From assembly GCA_037576195.1 (NCBI GenBank), contig CM075102.1, positions 32,112,745-32,176,744 on the forward strand: a DNA stretch of 64,000 bases, given 5' to 3'. This document shows, one piece after another, positions 1,639-48,728 of the stretch (within the stretch, counting starts at the first letter, position 1; every line of letters begins with the position of its first letter). The notes beneath the pieces were generated by a model. The model was not told where the DNA came from, did no database searches, and worked only from the letters and a program-made list of their open reading frames with translations. The position numbers and the translations under genes were made by a program. This stretch comes from Phytoseiulus persimilis. Lineage: Eukaryota > Arthropoda > Arachnida > Mesostigmata > Phytoseiidae.

Positions 1639-2376
1639 CTATCTGGAGGTCACGGTCGAGTCTGGTTTCGTTGTACTTGAATCAACATTGACGGGTAGAG
1701 CCGTGGTCGTTGATTGAATTGCTGTCTCCGGTGCTGACGGTGGCGAAGACTGAGTTGACGTCGTCGGTGGTGAAGTAGAGGCTGCAGACTCCGACGAGTC
1801 TGTCACCAACGTAGTGTTGGTATTGGATTCAGCGGGGAGGACGGTAAGAAACATGGACTCGGTATAGATTTTCTCTTTACGAGGCAGCCGACAGATGTAT
1901 TTGCCTTGGTCGACGTCGAGCACGGGGCTGACCCGGAGCGTCGATTCGGTTCTACCGTCTTCGACGAGGAGCCTGACCGACATGCGTTTGTCTTCAGTTA
2001 CACGACTCGATCCGTAGAACAACACTTTGAACTCGTCACTCTGCAGCCAAACAATGACGACATTCCTTCCGTCGGTTCGCGCGACGCACGAAAGCTCTGC
2101 GAATGAGCCGTTGACAACCGTCAAGTTCGCCAGCGGTTCTACCAGAGTAGGGGTTTCTGTGGTGCCGTCCCTTCCGTTCACGGAAACCTCACCGGGAGCC
2201 GGGGGCGCTGCAGCCCCGTTCACGCCAACGACTCCAACCGCATCGGGAGTGGTGGGGTCGTTCGAAACCGCAGGCGTCGTAACGGTCTCCGCAGAGGATA
2301 CACTGGACGTTACCGACTCACTGGAGACCACAGCGGTCGATAGAACGAGGCAGGAGGCCAAACAAAAGAGCAACAT
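1639..2376 (-). CDS. secreted single-Ig-domain protein with mucin-like tail
   Basis: A single open frame of 245 codons ending in TAG. I start it at the ATG at 2376, because the frame upstream offers only non-ATG codons and this start gives a clean signal peptide (residues 1-19, hydrophobic core LLFCLASCLVL). Residues 20-80 are a Ser/Thr/Pro/Gly-rich spacer. Residues 82-180 form one immunoglobulin domain with the expected marks: Cys97, Trp110 thirteen residues later, and the D-x-G-x-Y-x-C signature at 156-162. Residues 183-245 are Thr/Ser/Pro-rich, as in an O-glycosylated stalk. N-glycosylation sequons occur at Asn84, Asn90 and Asn187. There is no transmembrane segment or clear GPI signal, so it is probably secreted, perhaps for adhesion, recognition or binding. 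The exact family is not recognisable. A spliced 5' exon cannot be excluded. Confidence 0.75.
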   Translation of the reverse strand: MLLFCLASCLVLSTAVVSSESVTSSVSSAETVTTPAVSNDPTTPDAVGVVGVNGAAAPPAPGEVSVNGRDGTTETPTLVEPLANLTVVNGSFAELSCVARTDGRNVVIVWLQSDEFKVLFYGSSRVTEDKRMSVRLLVEDGRTESTLRVSPVLDVDQGKYICRLPRKEKIYTESMFLTVLPAESNTNTTLVTDSSESAASTSPPTTSTQSSPPSAPETAIQSTTTALPVNVDSSTTKPDSTVTSR

Positions 2377-29216: not shown

Positions 29217-29242
29217 GGGGGGGGGGGGGGGGGGGGGGGGGG
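29217..29242. repeat. G26 homopolymer
   Basis: About 26 consecutive G residues, the longest homopolymer in the window, about 0.6 kb upstream of the first glycine-rich gene. The exact length is likely to vary or to be affected by sequencing error. Confidence 0.85.
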
Positions 29243-29800: not shown

Positions 29801-29835
29801 GATAAAAGGAGGGATTCGGCACCGGCACAATCAGT
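29801..29835 (+). promoter_or_regulatory. TATA box and arthropod initiator of first glycine-rich gene
   Basis: GATAAAAG at 29801-29808 is followed by ATCAGTG with TCAGT at 29831-29835, about 30 bp downstream, the normal TATA-to-start spacing. TCAGT is the arthropod initiator consensus. Transcription would start about 35 bp ahead of the ATG. The same combination precedes the 47.5-48.5 kb paralogue on the other strand. Confidence 0.7.
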
Positions 29836-29866: not shown

Positions 29867-30154
29867 ATGAACAAGTTTCTTCTAGTGGCCCTCGTGGCTG
29901 TGTTCGTTCTCGTCCTGGTCTCTCAGGAGGCTTCAGCCGACAAGCACAAGATCATCAAGAAGATTGTCCTGAAAAAAGTGTTCAAAACCCTCAAGAAGGC
30001 CAAGTTCATCCCCATTGTCGTGCCGTTCCATCTATCGAAACACCAGAACCAAGGCTGGGATCAAGGAGGTTGGGATCAAGGCGGCCACGAAAAGTACCAC
30101 GTCCAGGAGATCGGAGGAGGACACGGTGGAGGCGGATGGGAAGGTGGATGGTAA
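29867..30154 (+). CDS. secreted glycine-rich protein with Lys-rich N-terminal motif (short form 1)
   Basis: An intronless gene of 95 codons. I chose the ATG at 29867 rather than longer upstream frames because it sits just after the promoter and opens directly on a signal peptide (residues 1-24, MNKFLLVALVAVFVLVLV then SQEASA). The mature protein begins DKHKIIKKIVLKKVFK and continues through KKAKFIPIVVPFHLSKH, a highly cationic segment shared almost unchanged with the two paralogues in this window. The tail has a GWDQGGWDQGG duplication, then HEKYHVQEIGGGHGG and a final GGW. It contains no cysteine after the signal peptide. Its role is unknown; a cuticle, silk or other extracellular matrix component, or an antimicrobial secretion, are guesses from composition. 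It is on the same strand as the 36.4 kb copy and about 6 kb from it. Confidence 0.88.
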   Translation: MNKFLLVALVAVFVLVLVSQEASADKHKIIKKIVLKKVFKTLKKAKFIPIVVPFHLSKHQNQGWDQGGWDQGGHEKYHVQEIGGGHGGGGWEGGW

Positions 30155-30658
30155 TCGGTTCCCGGTGAGCCGAGCTGTTGGCTGACAGAATCCGGTCGAG
30201 TGAACCGAGCCAGCTCCTACCAAGCAGGAGTTCGTCACGTTTGATTCGTCGATATCCTCATCCTCATCGTTCTCATGGAGTCGCCCTCGTTTGCCGCGCC
30301 GCCGGGAACGGCGGCCGAGAAGTGGGCGAACAGCGGGACGTCAGTCCGGAAAGCAGACGGACATCTTGTAAATAGAGCATCCTGCATCCTTCGATAATCC
30401 TTCCGTGCCACCGTGGGCATTACGTGTTCGGTGTCGTCGTCCAACCATCTCTCTTTCTCTCTCGATCGCTGGCTGTCCCACAATTTACCTCCTGCCCTAA
30501 ATCATGTGTGTCATGCCCCCTCTTCGCGGCCCCTCCTCGTGATGTCAGTGCTGTGTGCAGTGTGACGTCCGTGTTCTCGTGTTCTAGTCCGAGTTTATCA
30601 TCCTCACGTGTCGATCGTATACTAATTGTTATAATGTATTGTATAGTGTAATTATGTT

Positions 30659-30664
30659 AATAAA
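30659..30664 (+). terminator. poly(A) signal of first glycine-rich gene
   Basis: AATAAA about 0.5 kb after the stop codon, following an AT-rich stretch and followed by a GT/T-rich stretch. It is the first canonical signal downstream of the gene on this strand. Confidence 0.55.
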
Positions 30665-33600
30665 TTGTCGAGTTTCTCCTCGTTTGATCAGTGGAAAAAA
30701 CGCCTCCTTTGTTCTCAAGAGTGATATTCGTGAAGAACTCAGTTCTTCACCTGATCAACCGGAATAATGCGAAGCATCTTGGATTCTTCTCGTGAGATCA
30801 AGAGGACCCATGAGCAAAATAAACGACAATTTCTTCCCCGCCGACTGGAACGGCTCGGTCCGAGCAATCTTCACAGTAGAGTTCCTACGAAACTTTCACT
30901 GAATTCGCCGCAAAACTGTGGGAGCGGAGTGTAATTCCGTAGTGTGTGCGATGGATGACGCGAGTTTCGTAATGGCCAGAGGTTAGGGCTCTTCTGCCCC
31001 CACCCCCCTCTTCAACAATGGAAGAACGAACGTTCACACGGATTCGCAACTTGGACGTGCTCCCAGCCCACCTCAAGAAGCTCGCTGAAGGAATATTTCA
31101 GGTTTTCTAAAAATATCAGAATGGGAGAAAATTCTTGAGAACTGAGAATACACGAATGGCTGGCACGGTTGGCGCCTGGTCCCGCAGTTTCTCAATTTTC
31201 GTTTCACCCTGCGCACCAAAGTGTGAAGGCGCCCTTCGAGAAAACAGATGCCGATCTGGATTCAGTGGCACTTGACGGAGTACAATTACCACCCACTTAT
31301 GCGCATAGCCAATGACTGGTTCAAGGTTATGGACAAGTTCACGCTCATTTTTCGGCTCTTATCCAAGTTCTCCATTCCTGACATCTGTGCAACCACAACG
31401 ACGACAACAATGCAGCTACCGTTCTCGGCGATGTCGGGTTTCGGCACATATTTTCGAATATCAGCTTTGGGAAAGACATTTGAACCAGCAGTTGTATCTT
31501 TGACCCCAAACGCTTTCACCGTTTATGAACGGTGGTACCTACGGCTTTCGCAAATTTCCGTCACTTGAACGGTGAACTGCTAGCCTGTCCATTTCCTCGC
31601 CAGCTCGGCTCTCGGGAACTTCGAAGCATCGCTGATTCATACTCGTCAGAGTTTATTAAAATTCACAATCGGTGGGGATCACTAAAGTTGATGCCTTCCG
31701 GACTATTTGCGAACCACGCGTAACTGTTCTCGCGAGTAATTCAACCAACATGCAACCTGTCCGGCGTGATCTCTAACCCCTCTCATTAGGAATAAGTGTC
31801 TGCACCGCGGAGCTGAGCATTGGGGAGTGGTTTGAGGGGTTCCGATCGCTCACTCCCGAGGACACAAAATGAAAACCGACGTTGTCGAAGTTCACTCCAG
31901 CCTGATTGTCGTGCTCGCCATCGGATGGCCGCCGTTTTGGGACGAGCTTTCGACGGCTGCTATCCATCCCCTGGGTATGAACGGCTTTTCCGGGGGAATG
32001 TTCGGGGGAGTAGCTTGCTTGGGCAGTCCCTGGAACATTCAGGAGTTGACTGCTACATTCCTCAGAGTGAGTGTGGGCATCAAGTGCCGTACCGGGAAAC
32101 AAAGCAGTACTATAGCCACAAACCAGCGTTTACGCAACTCGAATGGTGTACGAAGATGATGTGGGCGTTGTTCGACGCGCCTCCCAACTGGTAATTTTGA
32201 CAAAGTGCCACGGTGCGATCCGCATGCCAGTCTGTTGGTGTTAACCATCCGTGTGGTCATCCGAACCGCGAGGCGCCTTTTTGTGCGGCCGACGGCGTCA
32301 TCGCCATCATTATTACAGGAGACATCATTGTTTCTCAGACAAAGTCCCGTTGTTTCGTTGCTTGTTACGTGGATGCAATGCATGTTCTATCCTACGATGA
32401 ATTTTATCTCCCTCTAATCTGGCGCGATGGTTCCCTCGTTTACTGCAGCGGCATCTTCACGTGACGTGCGTTCCCTCGGATTCCGGTGGTTTCGCGATTC
32501 GATTTTATAACAACAACGACTAGTTTGTGGCTAAGATGCCGCTAAACCGGTTAATCAGATGAGTTACAACGTTTCAATCCGCTCGCTGTTCTCACCGTGT
32601 GCGTTCGATAGTCTCCCAACGGACCTTGCCATTGACCATCATGAGAATCCTATCTATAATCACGGATGAAACTGATAGGGATCGTGGTCAGAAAGATGTG
32701 CGACGGCTGGGCACATTTGGTACTTTTCGGCAGTCGGCACGTTCGCCGATGTGCAGCTAGCTGGAAAACCGCTGGCATCGCCTCCATTGTGTCAAGGTGA
32801 GCCGTGAGACGACTGAAGATGACCCGTCAGGACGTTGTTTCATTTTTGGCAACATTACCTCACCACAATACTTTCTCCGGTAAGCGGGCGCTACCTGGTT
32901 AAAGACGAGGACTAAAAACAACGAGCGACACGTCGTGATATTCCCTCGCTGATCTGCTCAAAATCATGAGGATGAAAAATCTGTTTGAGCCTGGGCAACG
33001 GGCGATCAGGATACGCGTCTTCGAGAGATCGACGATAGCTTTCAAAGCTCGGATGCCGACTCGAGGATTCCGGATAGCACGACTGGGTTCCAGGAGTGAA
33101 CGTTCCGCAGTCGCTTTCGAACGGTCGCGGTTCTTCTGGTAGCTGGGACGCGACCAGCGAACGAATCTGTCCAGTCGGCCATAGATCGCGGTCCCAACCC
33201 CCCAGCGATTCGGCACGAAATTGGTGAAATATAGGTCGCTGATCAGCCCCCCCCCCCCCCTCCCTTGAGAGTTATAGATGAACCTTCCGACAACTCTACG
33301 GATCAGTGCGATTTACGCGGGCGTTGTTTTTCATGAGAAAGCGCCGACTCTGATCGCGACACAGAGCAGGTTCAGAAACTCAGCGAAGTCCGCTTCGATC
33401 GGAATCGGAGTTTGCGACCGAACATTAGGTCGACATGAGCAGGGAGTTTGTAGGAAGCTTCAGGAGTGTACGGAGCAAGAGAGATCGCAAAACTCACCGG
33501 GGTTTTATGAGAATAAACTGGAACAATCGTTAGTTGAGGAGATTGAGGGAGTACGAGTGCCGAATGATCTTGTTTTCCAAGATGATGCTTCGATCCACGA

Positions 33601-36376
33601 GGATCGATGGAGCTTTTTGTGACAGAAAGGAGTGCCGTACGAAGTGGAGCACAATTAAGTCGGTCACCCTACAAGGCGCCTCCGATGGTTTCAGCGGGAA
33701 GTCGCCCGCTGGTAGTCACTCCGTGGAAAACTCACGAAGGAGGGTCAGTGAATGGGCTTTCCGCCCCATTCGCGTAAACGCAATCAAAAACGCTCAGTCT
33801 AAACGGACGATCGTACAAGAATCACTGAGCCACTCCCTCGCATGACTCAACAAGTGCCACAGGATGACATCGGACCCAGTGTTCAGCGAGTAGTGTCTCT
33901 GACTTTGTCAGCACAGACGGTCCAGATGGAATCTAGCCCTCTCACTCTGGCATATTCGGAGGGGGGATGGTATCGCTCCCTCAAAAATTTTCCGACCGCG
34001 AGCACTATGGAAACGGTCTGTGTCGAGCTCCGAGCTGCGTCTAACCACCTCAGAATCCGCCCCCTCGGGGATCAACTCTATCTGCCGCTCCTGGATGAGC
34101 CGCTGCCTTCGCGAAGTCGCTCCACTGATAATGGCGCTGCGCAATGAAGCGAAATGATCTGCGAACGATTCGATTGATTGTGGAAAAAGCGTGATCTCGT
34201 CTTCTTTCTTCCTTCGCTGTCATGATTGTCTTCGACCGCGATCGTGCCGTCAATCGACACGCTCCAATACGTTTGATAGTACCAAGGATTCGCTCTGATG
34301 GCGTGGGTGCGCATCAAAACCTCTTACGACTGGACAAGTGTATTCGTTGATGGGTTGTTGTCTCGATCGTCACATTGCACGGGATCAATCAGAACAATCG
34401 ATGATTGCGTGCCCGACCGTCAGCAGCAGAAGGAGAGTCATTCTCAGTAAAAAATCATATGTGAATTCCGTTTGCGTCCGACGTTTCAACCAGTGTCAAG
34501 ACTGCGCTGACGAGGCGCTGAGCGCAATCCCATTCATCGTCATCATGAGATCTTCAATCCATTATCGAGCGAATATGCTCGCCTTACAAAACACTCCGAT
34601 CCGCTCGCGGCCGATCAGAACCATCTCCTATATGATGTCGCGTTTCTGCTTTCCAATGTTCTCGACCAGGCTTCGAACATCATTCGTTTTCTTCCGAATC
34701 CCGCTGTCCGTTATTTGCATCGCCTCTAGGCTACGCGCTGGGAGGCGAGCATCGAGAGCGAAAGTCTGCTGAAGACAGCGCCGAAAATGGAAGCGAAGTG
34801 CGATTATCAGAATCACACGTTCCGGTTTGTTTCGTAATTTTGAGATAAGTATGACCTATGCTTGGAGCAGCTGAACACGAGGGATACGTCGCTTTCGATG
34901 TCGATTGATCGAAGAGCGTCCGGACGAACACGCAGAGGTATTTCGTTGCTATGCCGTCTTCAGGGAAGCGCGCGAAGAATAAGGGAGCTTTGAACATAGC
35001 GTGGTAACTGCGCTGTGGAATGCCTGGGATTCTTCGCTGAAAGGTCAGAATAAATATAGCGTGTTAAGTCTATTTTCGAAGAAGTACAACTCCGAACGGA
35101 TAAAACGATCGGGAATCATTCCGAAACCCATCGTGCTTCAATTAGAAAGACGTGCGCGAGGGCCGAAGCCGGGCGCGCACGTTTGCCAACCCATCGGAAC
35201 TCGCGCCACGGAACAGCTGTTCGGGGCAGTCGGAAAGCGACACTGATGGGAGCTCAATAATAGAGATTGTAACAGCCAGTGGGTGTCTGTTCCACGGACG
35301 CGGCGACGAGACGCTAGAGGGTATCTGGAAAGGGCGAGACAGACGAGAACGAGAAAATTGCGATGGCCGTTGGAGGCAAATGAAGCCGGAAGACCCATGT
35401 TGATGAGTAGCGTCCCCGGCTGGATGCCTAGATACGAAGTTCGAGCTCCTGAGCTCAGATTCAGGAGTCAGACCTCGGGACGAATCTGCCGCTATCGGTT
35501 CAATCGCAGGTTTGAGGAATACTCGGACCACGCCTCGCTTCATCATTCGCTTGTGTGTCATTCGGAGTGATACAAACGGTACCCACGTTCCGCTGGGACC
35601 CTGGCGGATCGCGGCGCAAATACGAGGGACTCCATGGACGCGTGATTCATTTTTTATGGCTTTTCCGAGCTCATCTTGCACCTCGCTGGTGTCCCAAACG
35701 AGAGCTTGACCACCTGCGGAACTTTCACATCTGAGTCGTAAGCCCAGCTCTTTGTTTGTCAAGCTCTCAAGTGGGAGAAGCGATTGCGCGATCGCGCACT
35801 TCAAGCAACCGCAACCGAATTCGTTTGAAATATTTTCTCCCATGCTGGAAAACTGGACGGGGGAGGTGAAAACGAATGAGCGGTGGAAATGATGACTACG
35901 AGGGCATCCCAACGCTGAACACGCTGCGCAGGATTTTGGGAACGCCGGTCAAGTGATCTGTTGACAAGATTCGACGCCGGCGTACGGCTCTTCTCTTTCG
36001 GCAGTCAGTTTGAAAGTCTGTCCATTCAAAATCTTTCGTGTGTGTCGTATTATGCAACTCCTCGGCGACTAATCCTCCCACACATCCTTGGCCCTCATCA
36101 AGTGGCCGCTGTTGTCAGCGGTGGTGGAATACGCGCGTACGATTTCCGAATTTTTCTGTCCGGGGAGCATACCCCTCGATGGATAGCATCCTGCGGCCGG
36201 CGAGCGAAGTCCTCGAAGGGTTTGTTCTATTTTAAAAGTTCCAGGACAGCAGCCGCTTCCTATGCGGCGGTCGTCAGGCGAGGGCAGGGCGTTGCGCCCG
36301 AGAAAGGGGTCGACGCATCTTGCCACAGAGCTTTCTTTAAGTGAAGTATGCGCGGCAAGTTTCTAATCATTGTGGT
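30665..36376. other. intergenic between the two short glycine-rich genes
   Basis: I see no firm gene. Open frames at 31248-31568 (+), 34511-34729 (+) and 35142-35912 (-, 256 codons) have no recognisable domain, start context or splice sites. A C14 run lies at 33247-33260. Confidence 0.4.
33247..33260. repeat. C14 homopolymer
   Basis: About 14 consecutive C residues in non-coding sequence. Confidence 0.8.
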
Positions 36377-36381
36377 TCAGT
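36377..36381 (+). promoter_or_regulatory. initiator-like TCAGT ahead of second glycine-rich gene
   Basis: TCAGTGTTCC lies 15 bp upstream of the chosen ATG and is nearly identical to the initiator region of the minus-strand paralogue (TCAGTGTTCG). No good TATA box lies 30 bp upstream; the nearest A/T-rich element is TTTAAG at about 36336. The assignment rests on similarity to the paralogue. Confidence 0.35.
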
Positions 36382-36395
36382 GTTCCAAGTTCAAG

Positions 36396-36665
36396 ATGCG
36401 TTCGTACACCCTCCTGCTCGTCACCCTGTTGGCCATGTTCTCCATCTACGAGGCGGAGGCTGACAAGCACAAAATCATCAAGAAAATCGTTCTGAAGCAC
36501 ATCTTCAAGTCTCTCAAGAAGGCCAAGTTCATCCCGATCGTCGTTCCGTTCCACCTCACCAAGCATCCCAAGCAAGGATGGGAGTCCCACGGATGGGAAG
36601 GCGGTCACGAGAAGTTCCACGTCCAAGAAATCGGAGGAGGCCATGGGGGCTGGAATGAATGGTAG
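36396..36665 (+). CDS. secreted glycine-rich protein with Lys-rich N-terminal motif (short form 2)
   Basis: An intronless gene of 89 codons. An ATG at 36348 is in frame, but I prefer 36396: it gives a normal signal peptide (MRSYTLLLVTLLAMFSIYEAEA), aligns with both paralogues, and lies just downstream of the shared TCAGTGTTC element. The mature protein opens with the same cationic segment (DKHKIIKKIVLKHIFK, then KKAKFIPIVVPFHLTKH), followed by a Gly/Trp-poor linker and the shared end module HEKFHVQEIGGGHGGW. It differs from the 29.9 kb copy by a few conservative changes and by lacking the GWDQGG duplication. The high identity in the Lys-rich segment against a freer signal peptide and tail suggests tandem duplication with selection on that segment. 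Function unknown. Confidence 0.88.
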   Translation: MRSYTLLLVTLLAMFSIYEAEADKHKIIKKIVLKHIFKSLKKAKFIPIVVPFHLTKHPKQGWESHGWEGGHEKFHVQEIGGGHGGWNEW

Positions 36666-36901
36666 ACCACACTAGGAGCCACGGTTCATTCGGGAGCCAA
36701 CGTCCCACGCCCCGGATTCGACTCCCGAGTGCCCGACTCGGTGCTGATCTTCGGGATGCCTCCATGTTCCTGTACAGTGTTAGCGTGCCTTTCCTCCGGT
36801 GTTGAGTTCATTGTCATCATTTTGCTCACCAATCATTAACCACTGTCAACGTGTCCGCTGGTCGCACACGAGTTCGTCTCATGTAGAAGTCTGAAATAGA
36901 G

Positions 36902-36907
36902 AATAAA
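36902..36907 (+). terminator. poly(A) signal of second glycine-rich gene
   Basis: AATAAA about 240 bp after the stop codon, the first canonical signal downstream on this strand. Confidence 0.55.
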
Positions 36908-39900
36908 TTAATGTTGTCGAGTATGAAGATGAATCTTCCACGGCGCCATTTTTCGGCCTTGTGAACCCTGCCGGCTTCGTTCCCGTACTGCCCCCCGGAA
37001 CTTGTGCTGCAAGAGCTACGATCAGCGTGCGGCGAGGGGGTCGGCAGCCCTCTGTGGCGGAGATCCACTCGGGGTTGAGATAGAGGAACATTTTTCAAAA
37101 ATTTCGGATCCATGAAACCATTTTGGGAGAGTCACGAGAGTGGTGGGCGATATGAGCAACGAGCTGGCGACAGGATTGCCGGTCGAGGTAGCCGGGGAAT
37201 CACACCGCTACGGATGGAGGGCACTAATCCTATCGATGGCTCAACACAAAGGAGCGGTTGCGATTGCGTTTTTTGCCGTAATCGCTCAGTGCGATGAGGA
37301 GATTTCAAGTATCAGTTCCAGTGAGCACATTGCGTCGGCTGTGAGCGCAATTAACATCGCGGAACTAGCCGCTGTCACCCTGATGTTGTCAACCAAGAAG
37401 ACAAAGATGACTTCCTGCCATACACCAACGAGCTCATCAGCAACAACAGTGACGACGAAGCATGAAGACTCTGACTCAATTCATTGAGAACAATGCTGGA
37501 AAAACTTTCTCCCGTCGTGGAAGCGAAGTGATTCGCCGGTGACCGTGTGCGAGACTCAGCGCGCGCGCGGATTGCTCACGAGGGCTCGCTGAAGAGCCAA
37601 ACCCAACATGCTTCCATGATGCCACAATCAACAGGTGGTGCGTAATGGGAGGTTACGAGTCTGATTGAAGACTGATGACAAGTTTGCATCCGGGACTGCG
37701 TCCTACTTCGAGCTCCTGAATTCCGGGACGGCTCTCTCCAGTTTACCCGAGCGGTATTTCGCAACGATATTTCCCGCTTGGCTGCCTTTCGTCATCAAAG
37801 CGAGCGGCAGTCCCCCGGAGCATCAGTCTCGAGGAAATGAACGAGTTGGACACACAACTAGTTCGCCAAATCAGCTGCCCGCTCATGCACAATCCTCGAA
37901 ACATTGCGGAATGAAAGAATGCAACTTTGCCATGAATCCCTACGCTCGTCAGGGTCCTAATAGCCTGATTGTCTTAGCCGGAGGAAGCCGGGAGAGGAAT
38001 CGTGTCGTAATTCGCCGGTTTACGGCACTGTAAACGTATCAGGGGAGCCTTCCCACATCCTGAAGCTCCAACGGGAACAGGTGCTCGCATCTCGTGCGGA
38101 CAATCTGCCACTGGGGCCATTTGAAGGCCATCTGTGCAGGATCATTATTCGAGAGCGGCATCAGCAGCAGGTGTCTACTGCGAGGGTTCCGGAAACATCG
38201 GTGATCCATAAATCGAGAGCACGGTTGTTGGATCTCTTTACGCGCCTCATCTTCACTCAGAAGGAGGATGAATTCGGGACTATTCGGTAAAACAGTTATG
38301 CATGTGGTTTCTTCAGCCAGCTGGCAGGCATACTGATCACGTTCCCATGATTCTCGCTGCTTTTCCTGCTCTCCCAGTGGAATGCGAAGTAAAGTTCCGC
38401 CTGGAGCTTTTGACGGTGTGAAGCTCATAAAGCTCGAAAACAAAGGGTCCTAACCCCTCATTACGCAGCTCGTGGTGCCGCCGCTGGGCTCGCATGAAGG
38501 ATGATATCAAGTTCGTTTGGGAGCTGTCAGCTTCGCGGATCGAATAGCTTTGCAGAGTCGGAGGCGAAATCCTATTTCTCCAATTTCCATCCCATCCCTT
38601 AGGCAGATGCAGGCCATGGGGGAACAGGGGGAAACTCAGCCGTGGATGATTGATTCAACGAAGATGGCGCTTTTCTCCGTTCTTGGGTTCAGTCCGGAAA
38701 AGGCAAACCGTGGACGTGCGGCATTTCTCGAAAATTTCTTAATCTGCATGGTCATCCGTTCTGGGCCTGTGATCGCGGGAGAAAATGCCTCCCTTTTCGA
38801 ACATCGTTCCGAATCTCCCGGCAAATTGGTGGATCGCCCGCAGAGGGGCTCATTCGGAATACGTTCTCGTTCACCGGATCGGCTGCGGATCCTGTACGCA
38901 ATGATTCTGAGTTCCAGTTCTACACGATCCAATTGAAGTAGCGGACAAGTATGGCCCCAAGCTTCGCTAAATCCGTTCGATTGGTCACAGGAGCTATAAA
39001 CCTCCGCTAACGGCTCTTCTTCGAATCCTGGTTGCGCGAGGGTGCTACTGGACTTCGAACAGTCCTGCAGTTTCCGAGAATCAACTTCTGGGGGGCAGGC
39101 CATGCCTCCAGTTTCGCAGAATACGGCGCCGTCATCGAATTGTGGGGGGAAGTTACTTGGCTGATAGTTTCGGGTATCGCTTCATCCGCATGAAGATGTG
39201 CGCATTCATCGAAACCAGCACAGACGGCTGCAACGGGCAAAGGAAAAACAAGAAGACAGATATATTTTAGCTGTCAACACTGCCATCTCGTCGGTGATTG
39301 GAGCACCGAGTCTCTCTATTCGGCCTGGAGAGCCGACGAATACTCCGTTGTTCACCATCGAATCTTATTGACCCGCACGAGATTCGCGTGATGCTAGCTT
39401 CTGACGGAACGGCAGCTCGATTGGCGCAGCTCCGCCGAGATCGTCGATAATTAACGTGCATGACCCGACAGCTGGAGCTCTCTATTAGTGCCGTGCGCTC
39501 GGCTTCATCGGAACTTCGAATCGTATGGAACAATCTCATCCCTCCCAGTTCCTACAAAATTCAGAGCTGGAGTTCTTCCAGTAGGATATGCTCGATTCCT
39601 ACTGGCCGTATGAGGGGGAACTTCTGCAACCGCTTCCGTGTCTCTCTGGCGGGAGAATTTCCCCATTGGATCGGGAAGAGTTCGTTGAAGAATTCAAGTC
39701 TTGTTTGCGTTTCTCCCCGCCACGCTCGGAGAGACGAGGTTCGTCTCGTCGTCGCGTTGGCTGAGTGCGTATGATTCGGACCGCACGTACAACGAAACAC
39801 TTTCATTCTTCGTTTGATTAGTTTATTCAGGATGCTTGCGTGGCAGAACTTCGTTGTCCTGCGTTTCTCGCGAAGCGTTCCCGACAGGAGTTCAGCGCCG

Positions 39901-42900
39901 TGTGCGATTCTGGCTCCCGGAGCAGTGGTTTGCGAAGTTGTCGACAGCTGAGCCAGGGGGCACACGGAATGCATGGGATGCAGGGGCTCTGGGGTCTACG
40001 GAAAGGAAAGTTTGGGAACCCTCTTCCAAGCGAAAACTAATCAATGGATCCACCATCGGTTGGATCCGCCTCGAAAGTCGGATCATCGTCACCGTGGAGA
40101 GTTTGGCTCGCTTTTTTTGATGGAGCGCTCTTCACACACATTTCGAGAAGCTTAACTGGGGGTCTCCTTCTGAAGAAAAAATTCCCATCACGTATAGACC
40201 AGCGACGGTGTTATCCCACTTATCGGCGCTTCCACACATCGCCTCACGTGGCTCTTTTAACTGAATCAGGTGGCGTTGATGGATCCTGCTCATGGTAACC
40301 GTATTGCTTCTCAATAGATCAGCGGAGTATTGAGGCGGAGCTGAACTTTGGACGAATTATGAGGGGCAGTTCTGAAGAATGATTGGGAAGGAGAGCCCAC
40401 GTTGTACTTAACAAGTCGATGAGGATGGGAGAACGAGGCCAAGGAAGAGTCACATCCGTCATGGATGAGGGTTTGGCGTGGAACTGATGAGCCTGACGCA
40501 GACGGCATTTTTATGAGGAGGAAGACGAGAAGCGCGATGGGATGTCGGACATGGGTTCGGCGTTGCTCCAAACTCGATCAACTCAGAGTCGATTCTCGAA
40601 TCCTGACTGATCGCAGCTGGTCCATTCTAATATCACTTATTTCGTCATCGAAATCAGGAACGCATCCGCGAGCAGCGGATCAAGGTCAATTGGTCAAGCT
40701 TCGTCGCTGGGCTTCGACACTCTGAAGAGAACGTCGATCAACGGGCTTCACGAGATGTGTTCTTAATGCATTCGTCAAGGGTGTTGTTCTCCACGCGGCC
40801 CCAATCATCTACTCGCTCACCACTCAAGAGTCATTGTGTTCAGTAAGAATTGGCTGCACGCTTAGAAGATTCTCGGACACAAAGGAGTGATCGGGGTTGC
40901 CATCGAATTTTTTTCGTGTCTTTTTTGTCGATTTATCCTTTACCCTCTTGAGCCACGAGAGCTGCGGACGCGGTGCTGTCAATACATTGTTCCGCGTGAT
41001 CATCATCGTCTTGTTTTGCTTCGGCTCCGTTCTTCGTTTAAATCCTTCCGAAAATAAACAGAGCCGCGTGCATCGCCGCTTCCCTCGATCCGTCATTCCA
41101 CCGCACCTTGTCATCGCAAGAAAAAACGTGTTCAGACGCTCAAGCTGGGGATGTCCCGCTCGAGATCGGGCTGTTGCGACGTCGGCGTCATGCTCCCTGT
41201 TGCTGGAAATTCAACAGAATCTGTCCGGAGCGGAACCCCTCGATTCTCGTTGAATCTGAGGTGAGGTGGAACAGAGTTCTCGATCCCGGTGCCGTGTTCT
41301 TTTTTCCGGGTTGTATGTCCGGCTCGTTTTCCAGAAGAAGACATATCTGCTCGACTTACGGCTCCTCCTCGACGCTGGCGGGTCCGAGCCGTCGCAGCGG
41401 CGCACATGCAGTATCGATGATGCTACTCGCGTGCCCGTTCAGGAGACATCGATGTAGAGTCGCCCGCGGCCAATAAGCTCGGCGAGCGGCCAGCGACTCA
41501 ACCGGCTGGTTTCGGATTCGCGGGGATATCGTTTCCGCCCGAGAACCGGAGAAGAAAAACATAAAAGGAACACAGGCGTTGGCGCTGTCCAAAAATCTCT
41601 GGGAACGGTCAAATGCTTCCGAGCCACACGGAGTGACTTTCTTCCCTCGAGCCTGCTCTACGGGAGTCCCAGCCTCCATCTCTTATCGTCGATGGGAGGA
41701 CTGACGGGTGTCTCCCGAAGGGAATTCCCGAGCGAAACGATGTTCACTCACTTGGAAACGGGAGGAGCTCATTTGTTCCGCCGAACGAAGTGCCTTGAAG
41801 ATTTCTGGTCTGAGAGGTAACACATATGCTCCACGCCGTGTCATATCACGAGCCGGAGATCGGGCTCCTGAGATGGCGGCAGCCGATAACTTGTGAATAT
41901 GAGCGTTCTATCAGTGTCGACCAAACGCAACGAACAATTGGAGCAGCCGAATCTCACCGACCGTCCCGGTTAACAGAGAGCGATCGGAAGTCGGACGCTG
42001 ACTCAAAGACCATAGCTGATCCGACTCTCCAGAATATGTCCAGTGCTCTAGTGACAGAAGCGTCAGCTTCCCTCGTGCAAGAATCAGTTCTCGCGACTGA
42101 CCGAGACGTGAATTGCGAAAATAACCGGGTGCGGGTGATCCCTACGTTAGAGCTGGAACCCACTCGGTACGTCACATGCATATATATGGCATACGGGAAA
42201 GTTGTAGGGTGAAGCTTGCTTATTCGAAGTTGGCCCCCTCCCCTTCCCTAGTGGACAGCAACCAACTGCAGTGGACAGCTTAGCGTGCTTTGAACGTGCA
42301 CAGCATGCAAATGACACGTTATGAGGCCGTCCTGTTTATACACGCTAAAGCTCTACATGCGAGAGCATGCATAAATACTCACATACGCAGATGGCAACTC
42401 GCCCTTGATTAATACACCGAGCAAACGACCGGACGCCAAGCCTGCTCACCGACGTTGACGCTCAGCACTTTCAGACGCGCATGCAGTCTCAGATAGGATT
42501 GGAAATCGGAGATGGGCTATTGGGGTTAAAGTCCGACCTTCGGGTGGCGTCTTGACGGTTGATCTACGATCCGTTCGCAGAACACCACAAATCGATAGAG
42601 GAGTCGGAGAATGTCTCTGCGGGTTCACCTGTTGTTCAACCAAGCTCCGCGTCTGGTCTGAAATCACTCAGTTGGGAATCCGCCTTCCTTCCTTCGAGCC
42701 TGCTTGGAGGACACGGGAACGCGGTTCCGATTGGAAATGACGAACTCTTTATAGCTGTTGGTGGCTGCCAGGATTGGACTTTCCTGAACGGGTGTTTCCC
42801 ACTTCGTAACTCGACGTTCCCTATCGGTCTTCGATCGTTTACCAATCGTTTCTACCGAAACAATTTGATCCTGCTCAATACACAGGGAACGAACAGTTAG

Positions 42901-45744
42901 TTAACCGATTTGAGTGTTGTCTCCGACAGTGATCCATTCTGATACAAAATTATACGCCGAGGTTCTCAAAACTTGAGGAGTGCGCTTGACGATAGAAGAA
43001 GGTTCCGCCAGACGGGTACCCGTTGGAGATCCGAAACACTACAAGCGCACGCTCCTGTATGAAAATACTCAAACGGAAGCGCAAGCGCTCCCAGAGGGAA
43101 CCGGGTCAGTGCGACTCTGCGGGGTCGCTATAAATAATCTTCGTGCTCCCTCTAATGGGAATGCGCCCGCACGAGATTTGGAGTAACAGAAGTACACGCT
43201 TCTATCGGAGTTTTTGCGAGAATATACACGTGTGCCCAACTCCGTTGAAGGACCCTACATGGCGAACATATCGAAGAGTTCTCTCCATCGATGACACGGA
43301 AGCATAGCGCTCTTGTCACGTAGAAAGCGTTTGAAGACGGAATCGGGGTCTCTCGATGGTCACTCGAAGATGCTTGCCCACATATTGTTGCTTAGACCGG
43401 GCTTCTTCCGAAGCGTGAATCCCTTCCGTTAGGGATTCTAGCGTTTGCCGAAGCTGGCCTTTGGTTGTTTGGTGGACGGCTTTGTGGTCATTTTTCAAAA
43501 TGACGGATGTTCGCATAACAAACAGCCTTTCTTCTCCCCGTTCCTCCCGCTGCTCACCTCCTTTCTGCCGGTCAACGCCATGACTCCAACCAATCGCTGA
43601 TTTTGGGTACGTCTGTGAGCGATTTCATTTATTGCCGTAGTATCAATGGCAATAGATCTGGGATCGGCTTCCAACAGCTCCCAAAACAAATTTCGTTGAC
43701 GTCCATGAGATTGTGCTCAGAAGGCACGAGATCCATTGAGTCCCCACTAGCGATCGCTTCCCTGGTTCGAGGATTGAATCCTCTCACATAAGATTGATTG
43801 GCTCTCTGATTTTTCCTTGATCTTCTCCTCTTTAGAGCGGCAATGGCCATCGAGTAATCAAGTATGATTGGGTACGAATTTTCAGCGGCGTTGTCAGGGA
43901 CTTTGTTCACAGAATTTTTCAAGAGTGATGCTCAGCACCAGCCTCTGAACTTCACTCGTCCCACACGAAGGAAGAGATCAGATCTTGTTCATATGTCATA
44001 GCTTATTGTCACTTACCGGGGCACTCTTGGGAGTGTTCGCGAGTAGATCATGGGAGATATTTCATTGTTTACAATCTGTGAGTCGCGAGAAAACACATGA
44101 CGCCGAGGCTCACGATCTTTCTCCCATTTCGATTTCGGAAATCTTATCAGGAATCCGATCCTCCATTTTCTTCGTGAACAGAGCCATGCCGAAATTCTCT
44201 CACGGAAAGCTTCGAGAAGCTCCATTTCAGCGTTGAACGGCAAACTATTAAATAAATGTCTCTTCCTCTCATGGGCCGCGGCCAGCTGTACCCTAAGTCT
44301 CGAGCAACATTGTGGAAACCTTCCGGGGCTTTTGTCTTTGTCGCCTGTCGCGAGCTGTTCGCGAAGCTCTTTAGGCAGCTTACGAGTGATACGGATTAAC
44401 CCTCGTTCATGACAGGATCATCTGCGTTTGTTTCGTGGACGCAGCGAAGGCTGTTCGCGACACCATTCTGGGGTAGCAGTCAACCTTTCATTAAGATCAC
44501 AACAATCCGAAGAGCAGCGCCCCGATTCTGGAGTACAAGTTTCCGGAGGCTACACGACCCCTCCCAGGAACTCACCAGAGCCTGAATTCGAGACTCGGAG
44601 CCCGGAACTCGGATACGAAGATTATCCGCGACGAGCTTCCCCATCGCATTTTCAGTCCAGTTGAGAATCGTCATCGATGGAATTCTCTACGAATAAAAGC
44701 TTGAGTGGAGCTCGAATCTCCTGAGCCTGGGGGGGCGAGTGTTTGAGTTTTTGTCAAGTGGAGCCCGAGCTGAAAATGTTTGGGAACCACTGCTCTAGCC
44801 TATGACGGTTCGAGGCCCATCTAGATGATGGAGTTTTCCCTACGAGCCTCTGATAAATTCTTCTGCCGATCCCTTCTCTGCTGTACTCCCACGAGCCATA
44901 CACATCAGTTCGCATATCAGGGAGGTGACAAACTAGCAGCGTGTGAACAAATCGACATTAAACCAAGTCCTTGGTGTTCCTGCTGTTTCTTCTTGCTTCT
45001 GTCAGAGCAATCAGAGGAGAATATCACGATTGCTCCCTCCGGTGCTTCCAGATAGCTTCGTCAGATAGAGGAGTGGTCTATCGGTCCCGTCGGAACCAGA
45101 CGATGGGAAACGAATCACCGATTCATTACTGACTCAAGAGGTCCTGACTCCGTGGTCGTGATTGAGCTTTCACAAACGGCATGTTCATCGTTGCCATCTT
45201 TATTATCGTTTCGTCAATCTTACCCGATTCTATGATCATTATCGCGGAGGTTAAAGCGGCGCAGGGTTCACGTCCATCTTCATCATGAGTCACGCCACTA
45301 CGATAATCCTGATTGCGATAATTGAGGCAGGGCAGCAACATGAGTTTCAGTGAGGAAACTGTTTGTTCAACGTTGGCGCGTGTTTTGTGGGGAAGTGGTC
45401 ACCGTTTCTCGCCATTGTATTATGATGACATCGGTGTCATCTTTTCTTGAGGCTTGGCCCTCACCATCTTCAGGAGGCTGAAGAGCTCCGTTATCACACT
45501 GAACGAGCTCGGCTGTCAGACTTTCTCCCTGACGCTGGTTTTTAATTATGAGCCCACGGATTCGAAAAGTAGGGGAAGAATGGCAACGACCCTTTGAACA
45601 TCTGCCCAACGTTTCCGACTTCTCTGACATGCCCTTGGCAGAGTCTTCCTTCCGGCCGTGTTGAGGCCGGAGCCGGTTTTGGCTTTTTGTGGGGAAAACG
45701 ACCACGACCGCAAACGATGTTGACGTCAACGATACTCTTGTAGC
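36908..45744. other. long stretch without a firm gene
   Basis: There are only unassigned open frames, none with a recognisable domain: 37140-37487 (+, 115 codons from an ATG), 41826-42212 (+), 42559-42900 (+) and 43629-43922 (-). The last two have fairly natural amino-acid composition and could be exons of unknown genes, but splice context and homology are lacking. Confidence 0.35.
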
Positions 45745-45778
45745 TGGCTAACTTTCGTATTTTCTTTTCCAGGTAAGT
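45745..45778 (+). promoter_or_regulatory. recursive (ratchet) splice site candidate
   Basis: On the plus strand the sequence shows a branch-point-like GGCTAAC (CTAAC at 45748-45752), a pyrimidine tract (TTTCGTATTTTCTTTTCC), an AG at 45771-45772 and immediately GTAAGT at 45773-45778. A strong acceptor joined directly to a perfect donor is the signature of zero-nucleotide ratchet sites in very long introns. The MICU3-like gene on this strand has a donor at 17309 with no recognised following exon, so this site would lie inside its long intron. Alternatively it is the acceptor of an exon I cannot recognise. Confidence 0.5.
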
Positions 45779-45856
45779 GTTTTGTTGGTTCAGCTGTCGA
45801 CTAGCGGTTATGCCGCGGCGGCGATCGGCCGAGAGGCTGTAACTTCAGTAGGTCAG

Positions 45857-46095
45857 TCATTCATTGCAAGCTAGCAGCCAGTCGCTGTCGACGTTGACGT
45901 CGCTGTCGTCGGACTCACCGGAATAGACTTTCAACCGAGGGTTCAGGGGTCGACTGGACGTCCGACGCTTAGGCCGGTTGTAGTAGTCGTCATCGTAGAA
46001 GCGATCGGTATTTCGCAAGCTTGGTTGACGTCCGCCGGAGTGTAGTGGGATCCCTGCTGTTGACCTGTTACATCGTTCCAGCACGTTATGATTTG
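45857..46095 (-). CDS. possible C-terminal exon of an unrecognised gene
   Basis: This minus-strand open stretch of 78 codons plus TGA has marked codon-like third positions. It is preceded by a reasonable acceptor (CGTTACTTCCAG, AG at 46097-46096). The translation includes NTDRFYDDDYYNRPKRR, then NPRLKVYSGESDDSDVN, ending DWLLACNE. The mix of tyrosine/acid-rich, basic and acidic Ser-rich patches suggests a cytoplasmic or nuclear tail. A GTGAGT inside the frame (TATTCCG then GTGAGT, near 45917) could serve as an alternative donor. No upstream exon was identified before the glycine-rich gene at 47.5 kb. Confidence 0.38.
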
Positions 46096-47481
46096 CTGGA
46101 AGTAACGAGCTCCTCGGAAAAGGAGCCAAAAAAGGCGAGTTTGACTCTGCCGGAACAGCCATCCCATCGAAACTCAAAATTGTCCATTGCGGCCGCATTT
46201 AATGAGACTCCCACGCATAAAGCCGCTTTTACTCACGCCACCAACCAACACTCACCGGACACCTACACCCGCGGGTATCATTGCCGGCGGCTCTTCTTCA
46301 AAAAACTAACCGCACATGATTCCAAACATCAACATTTCTTTATTATTTCCGAATCTCAACGACCGGTTGACCGTCTCTGAGCTTACAATGGTTTCCTTTT
46401 TACATTCAAACAACTGCTCCAATAATGCGGGATTTTCTCGATGAAGTGCGCTCTGCTTTCCGAGGCTCCATTGTCACGAGTGGTCGACGAGTAGATTCTA
46501 CATAATATTAATATGAATACTATCACCGTTATTTGAACATACATATAAATATTTACTTTGCACAGGACTTAGGGAGGGAGGGGATGAGGGAAGAAGGTTC
46601 ACAAAGTCAGTCGAAGAGAACCAGCTCGATTCCCGTACATGTCGCTCCAAGAAGGGTTAGCTAAGAGCTAGGAAATGTTCCCGACCCATTACTCTCGCAC
46701 CCGAGTCTCGTGTGAGCAGAACATTGAATAACAGAATCACAACGATAACAATAACCTAGAGAGGAACACTGAACGAGTGCGCAAGCAAGCCGGCTGCGTG
46801 AGCAGATGTTATTTCGCGATTCGAAGCTTGCGACTGTTGACTGAATGTTCAGTCGGAGGTTCTCGGTGAATAACCTCAGTGAGAATAACATCCGATGGAT
46901 CAATGATCAGGACAAAGGGAAGATCCGTTACGGTTGAGGGCGCACGATGAGAACGCACAAGGACGGCGATCGTACATTACAATGACCTGGACTAGCTGGC
47001 GGAACATGGCACAACGAAAGAAAGTCAGTTTCTTGGTTCAGATTACAATCGATTCGATGGATGAATGGATGATCGGACGAAGAGAGATGAACATATGATT
47101 GGATGCGACGACGATTGTTAATTGTAGAGCAAATGAGAGCCAACTGGATGAATGCAGAATGAGTAAGCTGATGACGACGACGACGGTGACACGAACAATC
47201 AATGTCGCATTGTCATCTTGTATCGTAAAAGCATCGTCAGCTGACCTCTCTGCTGACCCTGGTTTGCTTTTTGAGCTTCCGGATGAGTTGTTGTTGGTGT
47301 TTCGTGTCGAGCCCGTGGAAGTGTTTTGGGGAAGCCTCTTCGGCCAATGACTATGTACAACAGCGAGGAGAAGTGAGACAACGAGGCGACAATTACTTCT
47401 ATCTGAGCCACATTGAGACGAGGAACGATTAGGACACTTTCATCACCTCCGGCTTGAGCGAGGTCTCCAGGGTCAGTCGAA
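46096..47481. other. 3' flank of large glycine-rich gene
   Basis: This region probably contains the 3' UTR of the minus-strand glycine-rich gene. The first AATAAA on that strand lies at 46344-46339, which would imply a 3' UTR of about 1.1 kb. A nearer non-canonical signal is possible. No further gene is seen. Confidence 0.35.
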
Positions 47482-48549
47482 TCACCAACCGCCGCCGCCG
47501 CCGCCACCTGCGACCTCCTGAACCTTGAAAGCTTTCGCGTCTCCACCTCCGCCTCCTCCCGCGGACCATCCACCACCACCACCTCCGCCTCCACCGTGTC
47601 CACCACTTCCACCATCGATGACCTTTATCTTGAACTGCTCCCCACCACCGCCTCCGTGGCCGCCACCGCCGCCCGAAGACCAACCTCCTCCGCCGTGTCC
47701 CCCTCCAAGACCTCCTCCGCCGTGTCCCCCTCCGAGGCCTCCGCCGCTGTGTCCGCCGCCAAGGCCTCCTCCGACTTCAGTAACTTTCCACTTCTCAGAA
47801 CCTCCTCCGAAGCCACCGCCTCCACCTGCTGACCATCCTCCGTGTCCACCGCCGCCGCCTCCTCCGAACTCGGTGACCTTCCATTTTTCACCGCCACCTC
47901 CTCCGTGACCTCCACCTCCAGACCATCCCCCGTGACCACCACCACCGCCGATTTCAGTGACTTTCCATTTCTCTCCTCCTCCGCCTCCTCCATGACCACC
48001 ACCACCTCCCCCTTTGCCGAAGTTCAAGGGGATTCCGTGTCCTTTTCCGATCGATACATCCGGTACAGAGATTTTCCACGAGTGTTTGCCACCTCCACCG
48101 CCACCTCCTGACCATCCGCCGCCGCCGCCACCTCCTCCTGACCATCCTCCTCCACCGCCCATGGACTTGAGAGCTCCTAATAGCTGATGAATATCGGTGC
48201 CTTCTCCCTTGCCGATCTTGACGTCAGGGACAGAGATTTTGAAGTTATGGCCACCTCCTCCGTGCCCACCTCCTCCTCCCATCGACCATCCACCGCCGCC
48301 ACCTCCTCCAGACCAGCCTCCGCCGCCACCGCCGCCGCCATGTCCTCCGCCCGAAGACCAACCCTGCTCCATTTGGCTCTTCATCAAATGGAACGGAACG
48401 ACGATTGGGACGAATTTCGCTTTCTTGAGGTGTTTGAAAACCTTTTTGAGCACAATCTTCTTGATGATTTTGTGCTTATCGGCTTCGACGGCGGACAGCG
48501 TGAACACCGACGCCAGCATGGCCATGCACAGCACTCGCATCGGCTTCAT
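47482..48549 (-). CDS. large secreted glycine-rich repeat protein with Lys-rich N-terminal motif
   Basis: An intronless gene of 355 codons. The start at 48549 (MKPMRVLCMAMLAS) gives a signal peptide to residue 23 and aligns with the short paralogues; a longer upstream reading would bury it. Residues 24-57 are the family motif (DKHKIIKKIVLKKVFK, KKAKFVPIVVPFHLMK). The rest alternates glycine-rich runs (GGGGHGGGGWSGGGG) with short strand-like modules. Two read KISVPDV-x-IGKG (preceded by F or W). Three read EKWKVTE followed by I, F or V. One reads EQFKIKVIDGG, and the last reads FKVQEV before the terminal glycines and Trp, matching the end of the short paralogues. A central HQLLGALKSM segment is unique. 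It is most likely an extracellular structural protein (cuticle, silk, adhesive or eggshell), inferred from composition. The opposite strand is Pro-rich and open, which is a shadow. Confidence 0.9.
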   Translation of the reverse strand: MKPMRVLCMAMLASVFTLSAVEADKHKIIKKIVLKKVFKHLKKAKFVPIVVPFHLMKSQMEQGWSSGGGHGGGGGGGGWSGGGGGGGWSMGGGGGHGGGGHNFKISVPDVKIGKGEGTDIHQLLGALKSMGGGGGWSGGGGGGGGWSGGGGGGGKHSWKISVPDVSIGKGHGIPLNFGKGGGGGGHGGGGGGEKWKVTEIGGGGGHGGWSGGGGHGGGGGEKWKVTEFGGGGGGGHGGWSAGGGGGFGGGSEKWKVTEVGGGLGGGHSGGGLGGGHGGGGLGGGHGGGGWSSGGGGGHGGGGGEQFKIKVIDGGSGGHGGGGGGGGGWSAGGGGGGDAKAFKVQEVAGGGGGGGW

Positions 48550-48694: not shown

Positions 48695-48728
48695 ACTGAT
48701 CGATGCTCTATCGTGCTCGTCCTTTTAT
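48695..48728 (-). promoter_or_regulatory. TATA box and arthropod initiator of large glycine-rich gene
   Basis: On the minus strand CATAAAAGG (plus positions about 48721-48729) is followed about 30 bp later by ATCAGTGTTCG, with TCAGT at 48699-48695. This predicts a 5' UTR of roughly 150 nt before the ATG at 48549. The initiator matches those of the two plus-strand paralogues. Confidence 0.7.

What the first reader, a model, noticed from the sequence alone, without database searches (positions are those of the whole stretch)
29867..48549. Three-gene cluster of an unrecognised secreted glycine-rich family defined by an invariant Lys-rich N-terminal segment
Seen directly: three intronless genes share a signal peptide, then a segment beginning DKHKIIKKIVLK and ending VPFHL-x-K that is nearly identical in all three, then a glycine-rich tail closing on a VQE-I/V module with Gly and Trp. 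The cationic segment is more conserved than the signal peptide or tail, so selection acts on it. Alternating Lys and aliphatic residues suggest an amphipathic strand or helix that could bind a polyanion, membrane or chitin. I know no named family with this motif.
Basis: partly seen in the sequence, partly recalled or inferred. Interest (0 to 1): 0.78.

Follow-up and report, generated by a model that had tools for sequence, protein, structure and literature searches.

The report
Mite secreted proteins with cationic helix
Three genes here belong to a nine-gene family, probably in a mite, whose secreted proteins start with a strongly conserved positively charged helix and end in a flexible tail rich in tryptophan and often glycine; they look like building blocks of a cuticle or glue-like material, or less likely germ-killing peptides.

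Summary
Three complete single-exon ORFs lie at 29867-30154 (+), 36396-36665 (+) and 47482-48549 (-). Each has a signal peptide, a 34-residue Lys-rich segment (29 of 34 columns identical in all three) and a Gly/Trp tail.

Six more members lie just past the window's end, so the array has 9 genes over about 82 kb. One weaker candidate lies 9 Mb away (E 0.024). VPFHL is specific to the window trio. The family-wide signature is an amphipathic Lys helix, then a Pro/aliphatic stretch (IPLVIPLP in the other six), then usually E-x-W-x-V-x-E, then Trp with or without much Gly. There is no Cys after the signal peptide. The segment is under purifying selection. AlphaFold gives a helix at residues 24-44 and low-confidence coil after 55. 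A TATA-like box precedes 8 of 9 genes.

Pfam, NCBIfam and PDB give no credible match. No arthropod protein database was available, so "unrecognised" is only partly tested.

Best reading (0.5): secreted matrix proteins in which a cationic helix docks or assembles and the Trp/Gly tail condenses, as for tick-cement glycine-rich protein. Main rival (0.27): helix-headed glycine-rich antimicrobial peptides. No expression data were available.

The parts
29867..30154 (+). G1, complete ORF, 95 aa: signal peptide + Lys-rich segment + Gly/Trp tail
29867..29938 (+). G1 signal peptide (24 aa, ends ASA before Asp; cleavage site judged by eye, no predictor run)
   Evidence: AlphaFold helix 2-20
29939..30040 (+). 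G1 conserved 34-residue segment DKHK...VPFHLSK (helix 24-44, then Pro/aliphatic stretch)
29801..29835 (+). G1 TATA-like GATAAAA (29801-29807) and initiator-like TCAGT (29831-29835)
36396..36665 (+). G2, complete ORF, 89 aa; conserved segment 36462-36563; no TATA-like box found in the 260 nt upstream
47482..48549 (-). G3, complete ORF, 355 aa; signal peptide 48549-48481, conserved segment 48480-48379, long Gly/Trp tail with EKWKVTE[IVF] and KISVPDV modules
48695..48729 (-). G3 TATA-like CATAAAA (48729-48723) and initiator-like TCAGT (48699-48695)

Best explanation
A tandem family of secreted extracellular-matrix proteins (cuticle, eggshell, or a gland secretion such as glue or silk) built as head plus tail. 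The head, right after the signal peptide, is a short cationic amphipathic helix followed by a rigid Pro/aliphatic stretch (IPLVIPLP, or IPIVVPFHL in the window trio). It would dock the protein to an anionic or hydrophobic partner (chitin-associated matrix, acidic matrix proteins, a membrane or each other). The tail, with Trp set among Gly or polar residues and one or more E-x-W-K-V-x-E-like modules, would self-associate (Trp-Trp and Lys-Trp contacts) into a condensed, water-poor material. Shown here: the gene array, domain layout, lack of Cys in the mature proteins, constraint on the head, variable tail length, TATA-like boxes. Inferred: secretion, helix in vivo, self-association, tissue and material role.
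For: Nine tandem genes with one shared head and tails of 30 to 298 residues, a pattern expected of structural proteins whose tail length tunes the material. Head strongly constrained while tails differ in length and composition. No Cys in any of the 9 mature proteins, Gly up to 51 %, 3-14 Trp each, Trp as last residue in 7 of 9. TATA-like box in 8 of 9 upstream regions against 10 % of random 260-nt windows (pattern set after viewing the sequences), as is usual for strongly expressed stage- or tissue-specific genes (established knowledge). AlphaFold: helix 24-44, then pLDDT below 50 from residue 55. Working precedent: the tick-saliva glycine-rich protein phase-separates through periodically placed aromatic and Arg residues and ages to an adhesive gel (PMC11794139, abstract and passages).
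Against: No expression, localisation or proteomic data. The members match no cuticle family in Pfam. Tyr, a partner of Gly in tick and silk GGY repeats, is nearly absent (0-1 in each of the nine). Five members have mature Gly below 20 % (G6 4, G9 6, G8 9, G2 13, G7 17), so for those the matrix reading rests on Trp and the head. Trp spacing is irregular, 3 to 48 residues. The tick precedent depends on Arg, which these tails hardly use. A cationic helix right after the signal peptide is also what an antimicrobial peptide looks like.
Confidence: 0.5

Rival explanations
1. Antimicrobial peptides: the mature N-terminus is a cecropin-like cationic amphipathic helix that disrupts microbial membranes, and the Gly-rich tail is a second, acanthoscurrin/ctenidin-like part. 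Mesostigmatid mites would use these in place of the missing cecropins and defensins.
For: Net charge of +6 to +9 over 19-20 residues and helical periodicity. A Varroa immune-gene survey reports no canonical AMPs by BLASTp but ctenidin-like Gly-rich hits in Varroa and G. occidentalis (PMC12027997, abstract and passages; the paper itself warns that BLASTp misses such short peptides). Dermanyssus larvae express a 168-aa ctenidin-like Gly-rich protein (PMC8028124, passages). The IIKK unit of the head also occurs in the frog peptide aurein 1.2 (search listing and abstract starts only). Two of nine members have a weak sub-threshold Pfam hit to YxzE-like putative bacteriocins (G1 E 0.046, G7 E 0.0094, cut-off 40 bits against 15-17), which I take as composition.
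Against: The head is almost frozen between old paralogs (dN 0.06-0.11 in the trio with dS near saturation), unlike the fast divergence common in AMP families (established knowledge, not tested). None of the nine ends in Gly for C-terminal amidation, which serrulin, acanthoscurrins and ctenidins carry. Tails of G1, G2, G4, G5, G6 and G8 are net acidic. Full-length helical moment at exactly 100 degrees is not significant.
Confidence: 0.27
2. A chitin- or polyanion-binding cuticle family: the Lys helix is itself the ligand-binding domain, and the tail is only a flexible spacer.
For: Strong constraint on the head; six of nine proteins are short (87-103 aa) with tails of 30-42 residues.
Against: No similarity to PF00379 or any other chitin-binding Pfam family. 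The E-x-W-K-V-x-E-like module is itself kept in 8 of 9 and, in the long members, repeated, so the tail is not just spacer.
Confidence: 0.15
3. Salivary, venom or other exocrine proteins acting on prey or host, not structural.
For: Small secreted tandem paralogs; tick Gly-rich proteins have been studied mainly in salivary glands (PMC11772090, abstract and passages).
Against: No Cys in the mature proteins, tails predicted without structure (G1), and no accelerated evolution of the head.
Confidence: 0.08

Closest known systems
Tick saliva glycine-rich protein (tick-GRP77, UniProt Q4PME3; PMC11794139)
   Same: Short secreted chelicerate protein, no folded domain predicted in its tail, aromatic residues interspersed with Gly, cationic residues available for cation-pi contacts.
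   Different: Tick-GRP77 has an acidic N-terminus and an Arg/Phe/Tyr C-terminus and is predicted disordered throughout; this family has a cationic helical head, Trp and Lys. Its sequence was not in hand, so no alignment was made.
Acanthoscurrins, ctenidins, serrulin (Gly-rich AMPs of spiders and scorpions; PMC6784228)
   Same: Secreted, Gly-rich (3 of 9 clearly), cationic overall (8 of 9; G4 is acidic), chelicerate if the organism is a mite.
   Different: Those are amidated at the C-terminus; these end in Trp, His or Asp. The passages seen describe no helical head in them.
Arthropod RR cuticle proteins (PF00379)
   Same: Secreted, tandem arrays, few Cys (recalled for RR proteins); 112 matches in the same genome.
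   Different: None of the nine matches PF00379.
Cecropin-type linear cationic helices
   Same: Amphipathic Lys-rich helix at the mature N-terminus (recalled for cecropins).
   Different: Pro/aliphatic stretch and Gly/Trp tail instead of a second helix; no Pfam hit to a cecropin family.

Membership tests
RR cuticle proteins (CPR, PF00379) | Rebers-Riddiford domain | tested here: not met
   No PF00379 match in any of the nine full-length proteins at E up to 10 (G1-G3, G4-G9); the genome's 112 RR matches lie elsewhere
Acanthoscurrin/ctenidin Gly-rich AMPs | Gly-rich mature peptide | tested here: inconclusive
   Gly 43-51 % in 3 of 9 (G3, G4, G5), 20 % in G1, 4-17 % in the other five
Acanthoscurrin/ctenidin Gly-rich AMPs | C-terminal amidation (a C-terminal Gly as amide donor) | tested here: not met
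   Last residues are W in 7 of 9, H in G8, D in G9; amidation of the known peptides read in passages of PMC6784228; the need for a donor Gly is recalled
Acanthoscurrin/ctenidin Gly-rich AMPs | Hemocyte expression and antimicrobial activity | not testable with these tools
   No RNA or assay data
Tick-cement-type glycine-rich proteins | At least 20 % Gly (definition in PMC11772090) | tested here: inconclusive
   3 of 9 clearly above; G1 at 20 % after rounding; five below
Tick-cement-type glycine-rich proteins | Disordered chain with periodic aromatic stickers | tested here: inconclusive
   G1 pLDDT below 50 at residues 55-95 (only G1 was modelled). Trp spacing is irregular: 7 to 48 residues in the long members G3-G5, 3 to 23 in the short ones. 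A cationic helical head is present, which tick-GRP77 lacks
Tick-cement-type glycine-rich proteins | Phase separation and salivary expression | not testable with these tools
Any Pfam, NCBIfam or PDB family | Match above the curated cut-off or a convincing E-value | tested here: not met
   Pfam on all nine in full and on their N-terminal parts; NCBIfam on G1-G3 only; PDB with G1, with the G1 segment and with the nine-member profile. Best: PF07172 GRP on the Gly tail of G3 (E 1.7e-4, 22.6 bits against a cut-off of 30), YxzE on G7 (E 0.0094), PDB E 2.6

The most novel reading that the evidence does not exclude
A mite-lineage family that joins a cecropin-like cationic helix to a phase-separating Gly/Trp tail: a helix-headed glycine-rich host-defence family that fills the gap left by the canonical antimicrobial peptides reported missing from Varroa and other mites, possibly as an antimicrobial coat that is also structural.
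Probability: 0.2. Interest if true: 0.68.

Novelty: new variant of a known kind. Interest (0 to 1): 0.4.

Why it matters
Glycine-rich secreted proteins are usually lumped together by composition. Here a strongly constrained 34-residue head defines a true gene family that profile searches can follow through low-complexity tails. If the head drives assembly, it gives a compact testable module for arthropod glue or cuticle materials; if it kills microbes, it would help answer what mites use instead of cecropins and defensins.

Tried and rejected
Rejected: chance ORF; DNA repeat or recent duplication (segment dS 0.92 or more in all 36 pairs, past saturation in 16); RR cuticle family; strand model of the head. 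At exactly 100 degrees the moment of the full 19-20-residue head is not significant (p 0.05-0.53 for the nine); it is so only near 88 degrees, a period of about 4.1, and the 86-104 band was chosen after seeing that. The hydrophobic stripe would wind round the helix; this is evidence against a clean textbook amphipathic helix. Within the band the shuffle p for G1 and G3 is 0.06.

A first, stricter TATA-plus-initiator pattern matched 2 of 9 genes; the wider one, written after reading the upstream sequences, matched 6 of 9, and the TATA part alone 8 of 9.

Led nowhere: literal motif strings in the paper library, two searches with 0 papers (figures and supplements are not covered); viral contigs, 600 pattern stretches and no relative; bacterial/archaeal genome contigs, 103 stretches and no relative; Rfam on the window, 0; COX1 not found in the assembly; insect odorant receptor family 0 matches, but the controls rang nowhere, so uninformative; tail module EKWKVxE outside the family, 2 other places in the genome against 2 for the reversed pattern; Pfam on 10 of the 73 ORFs of 100 aa or more in the window, only the Ig-like ORF matched. 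Paper searches for a phytoseiid genome or a mite Lys/Gly-rich family gave nothing on this family in the listings; passages were read only in PMC8028124, PMC11772090, PMC6784228, PMC11794139 and PMC12027997.

The tenth candidate (C2:41302343-41302456, E 0.024; read) keeps FIPLPIPLPIIK, but its Lys part has strand-like, not helix-like, periodicity. I do not count it as a member.
Full report
OBSERVATION. The three ORFs are at the stated places: G1 29867-30154 (+, 95 aa), G2 36396-36665 (+, 89 aa), G3 47482-48549 (-, 355 aa). Each begins with a hydrophobic signal-peptide-like stretch ending in A-S-A, A-E-A or V-E-A (judged by eye) and goes straight into DKHKIIKKIVLK. Of the 34 columns from DKHK to VPFHL-x-K, 29 are identical in all three. 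Each tail closes on V-Q-E-I/V plus Gly and a final Trp. The coding pattern for DKHKIIKKI is found three times in the whole 181-Mb genome, all here, and not for the reversed control.

THE CLUSTER IS LARGER. The window is C2:32112745-32176744 of a genome with 127 contigs. A whole-genome protein search, an ORF scan of 264 kb round the window and two further whole-genome searches find six more members just past the window's end: G4 C2:32190074-32190964 (+, 296 aa), G5 32199462-32199920 (-, 152 aa), G6 32207513-32207806 (-, 97 aa), G7 32213755-32214066 (-, 103 aa), G8 32218907-32219191 (-, 94 aa), G9 32224764-32225027 (-, 87 aa). Nine genes span about 82 kb; the ORF scan found none in the 80 kb upstream of the window or the 72 kb after G9. 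A profile of the nine segments finds those nine at E 3.4e-12 or better and nothing else below E 8; five column-shuffled profiles give a best E of 0.17 (these nine built the profile, so their own scores are flattering). The whole-genome searches score only the best candidates, so a count elsewhere is a lower bound. One weak further candidate lies at C2:41302343 (E 0.024; protein) and is not counted.

ANATOMY. Across the nine (N-terminal 64-82 residues only) ten mature-region positions are invariant (I33 L35 K36 K40 L42 K44 P49 V51 P53 K58 in G1 numbering). VPFHL occurs only in the window trio; the other six have IPLVIPLP[LI][IL]K. After this comes, in 8 of 9, an E-x-[WFY]-x-V-x-E-like module, repeated in G3, G4 and G5; G6 has a variant. 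Tails after the segment run from 30 (G9) to 298 (G3) residues with 3-14 Trp; their Gly content is 54-59 % in G3-G5, 27-38 % in G1, G2 and G7, and 5-15 % in G6, G8 and G9. No mature protein has Cys; the last residue is Trp in 7 of 9, His in G8, Asp in G9. The EKWKVxE coding pattern occurs 8 times in the genome, 6 of them in this family.

STRUCTURE OF THE HEAD. Hydrophobic periodicity of all nine heads peaks at 86-91 degrees per residue; within the helical band 86-104 (set) the shuffle p is 0.00-0.06, in the strand band above 0.75. At exactly 100 degrees over the full length it is not significant (p 0.05-0.53), so the hydrophobic stripe winds. AlphaFold on G1 with a three-row alignment gives helices 2-20 (signal peptide) and 24-44 (head, pLDDT 76 in the block 31-40) and pLDDT below 50 from 55 on; overall mean pLDDT is 54, so this is weak support.

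SELECTION. Nei-Gojobori: segment dN 0.071, 0.064 and 0.112 for G1-G2, G1-G3 and G2-G3, with dS 1.8, 2.8 and saturated; signal peptide dN 0.45, 0.62 and 0.67. In 36 of 36 pairs of the nine, segment pN is below signal-peptide pN and below segment pS; the lowest segment dS is 0.92, and 16 pairs are past saturation. So duplications are old and the head is held by purifying selection. Tails were not scored because they do not align.

PROMOTERS. A TATA-like box lies in the 260 nt before the ATG in 8 of 9 (not G2), against 10.4 % of random windows (binomial P 1e-7); in 6 of 9 it is followed at initiator distance by an initiator-like word, against 1.1 %. Both patterns were written after viewing the sequences; a stricter earlier pair pattern matched 2 of 9. 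This supports complete, expressed, intronless genes; no RNA evidence was available.

ORGANISM. 112 RR cuticle matches were found, all but five on the large contigs C1-C4, so this is an arthropod. Of the 12 RR loci fetched, 10 carry T-N-E-x-G and 2 S-N-E-x-G just after the RR core, several followed by E-S-K-N-P-A-D-V (a first, narrower filter printed only 2 of 12). I recall this ending as typical of arachnids. Four large contigs, 181 Mb, and 50-56 % GC in the window fit, from recall, a mesostigmatid (perhaps phytoseiid) mite. This is inference; the record is unnamed.

KNOWN FAMILIES. Pfam gives no match above cut-off for any of the nine in full, NCBIfam none for G1-G3, PDB none for G1, its segment or the nine-member profile. 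Sub-threshold hits are PF07172 on the Gly tail of G3 (E 1.7e-4) and YxzE-like on G1 (0.046) and G7 (0.0094), which look like composition. Literal motif strings are in 0 papers of the library. No arthropod protein or transcript database could be searched, so absence of a name elsewhere is not shown.

MECHANISM. I favour a secreted matrix protein: a constrained cationic head for docking or assembly and a Trp/Gly tail for condensation, by analogy with the tick-saliva glycine-rich protein whose condensation depends on spaced aromatic and Arg residues (PMC11794139, abstract and passages). The analogy is imperfect: the tick protein uses Arg, Phe and Tyr and has an acidic N-terminus. The antimicrobial rival is serious: Varroa and other mites are reported to lack cecropins and defensins by BLASTp, a method the authors call poor for such short peptides, but to have ctenidin-like Gly-rich hits, in Varroa and G. 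occidentalis (PMC12027997, abstract and passages), and Dermanyssus larvae express a ctenidin-like protein (PMC8028124, passages). Against it stand the frozen sequence of the head, the missing C-terminal Gly for amidation and the acidic tails of six members.

VERDICT. A real, constrained, tandem secreted gene family with an unusual head; a new variant of a known broad kind (glycine-rich secreted proteins), of moderate interest until expression or activity is known.

Noticed in passing
window 1639-2376, strand -: ORF with a signal-peptide-like start and one immunoglobulin-like domain (Pfam Ig_3 E 1.4e-5, below its curated cut-off), perhaps one exon of a larger gene.
   Followed up: partly
L020, ATG at about 9092, strand - (C2:32265836): 77-aa ORF with signal-peptide-like start, many Cys and a TATA-like box 232 nt upstream: a possible small Cys-rich secreted protein about 41 kb past the array.
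   Followed up: no
L044 143-418, strand - (C2:41302343-41302456): Distant single candidate relative with FIPLPIPLPIIK but a strand-like Lys part and no Trp.
   Followed up: partly
whole genome, e.g. C2:21481744-21494707 and C1:36456990-36484671: 112 Chitin_bind_4 matches, many in tandem groups, those nearest to this array at C2:32418004 and C2:31455818; 12 of 12 read carry [TS]-N-E-x-G after the domain.
   Followed up: partly
window 29217-29242: Pure run of 26 G about 625 bases upstream of G1.
   Followed up: no
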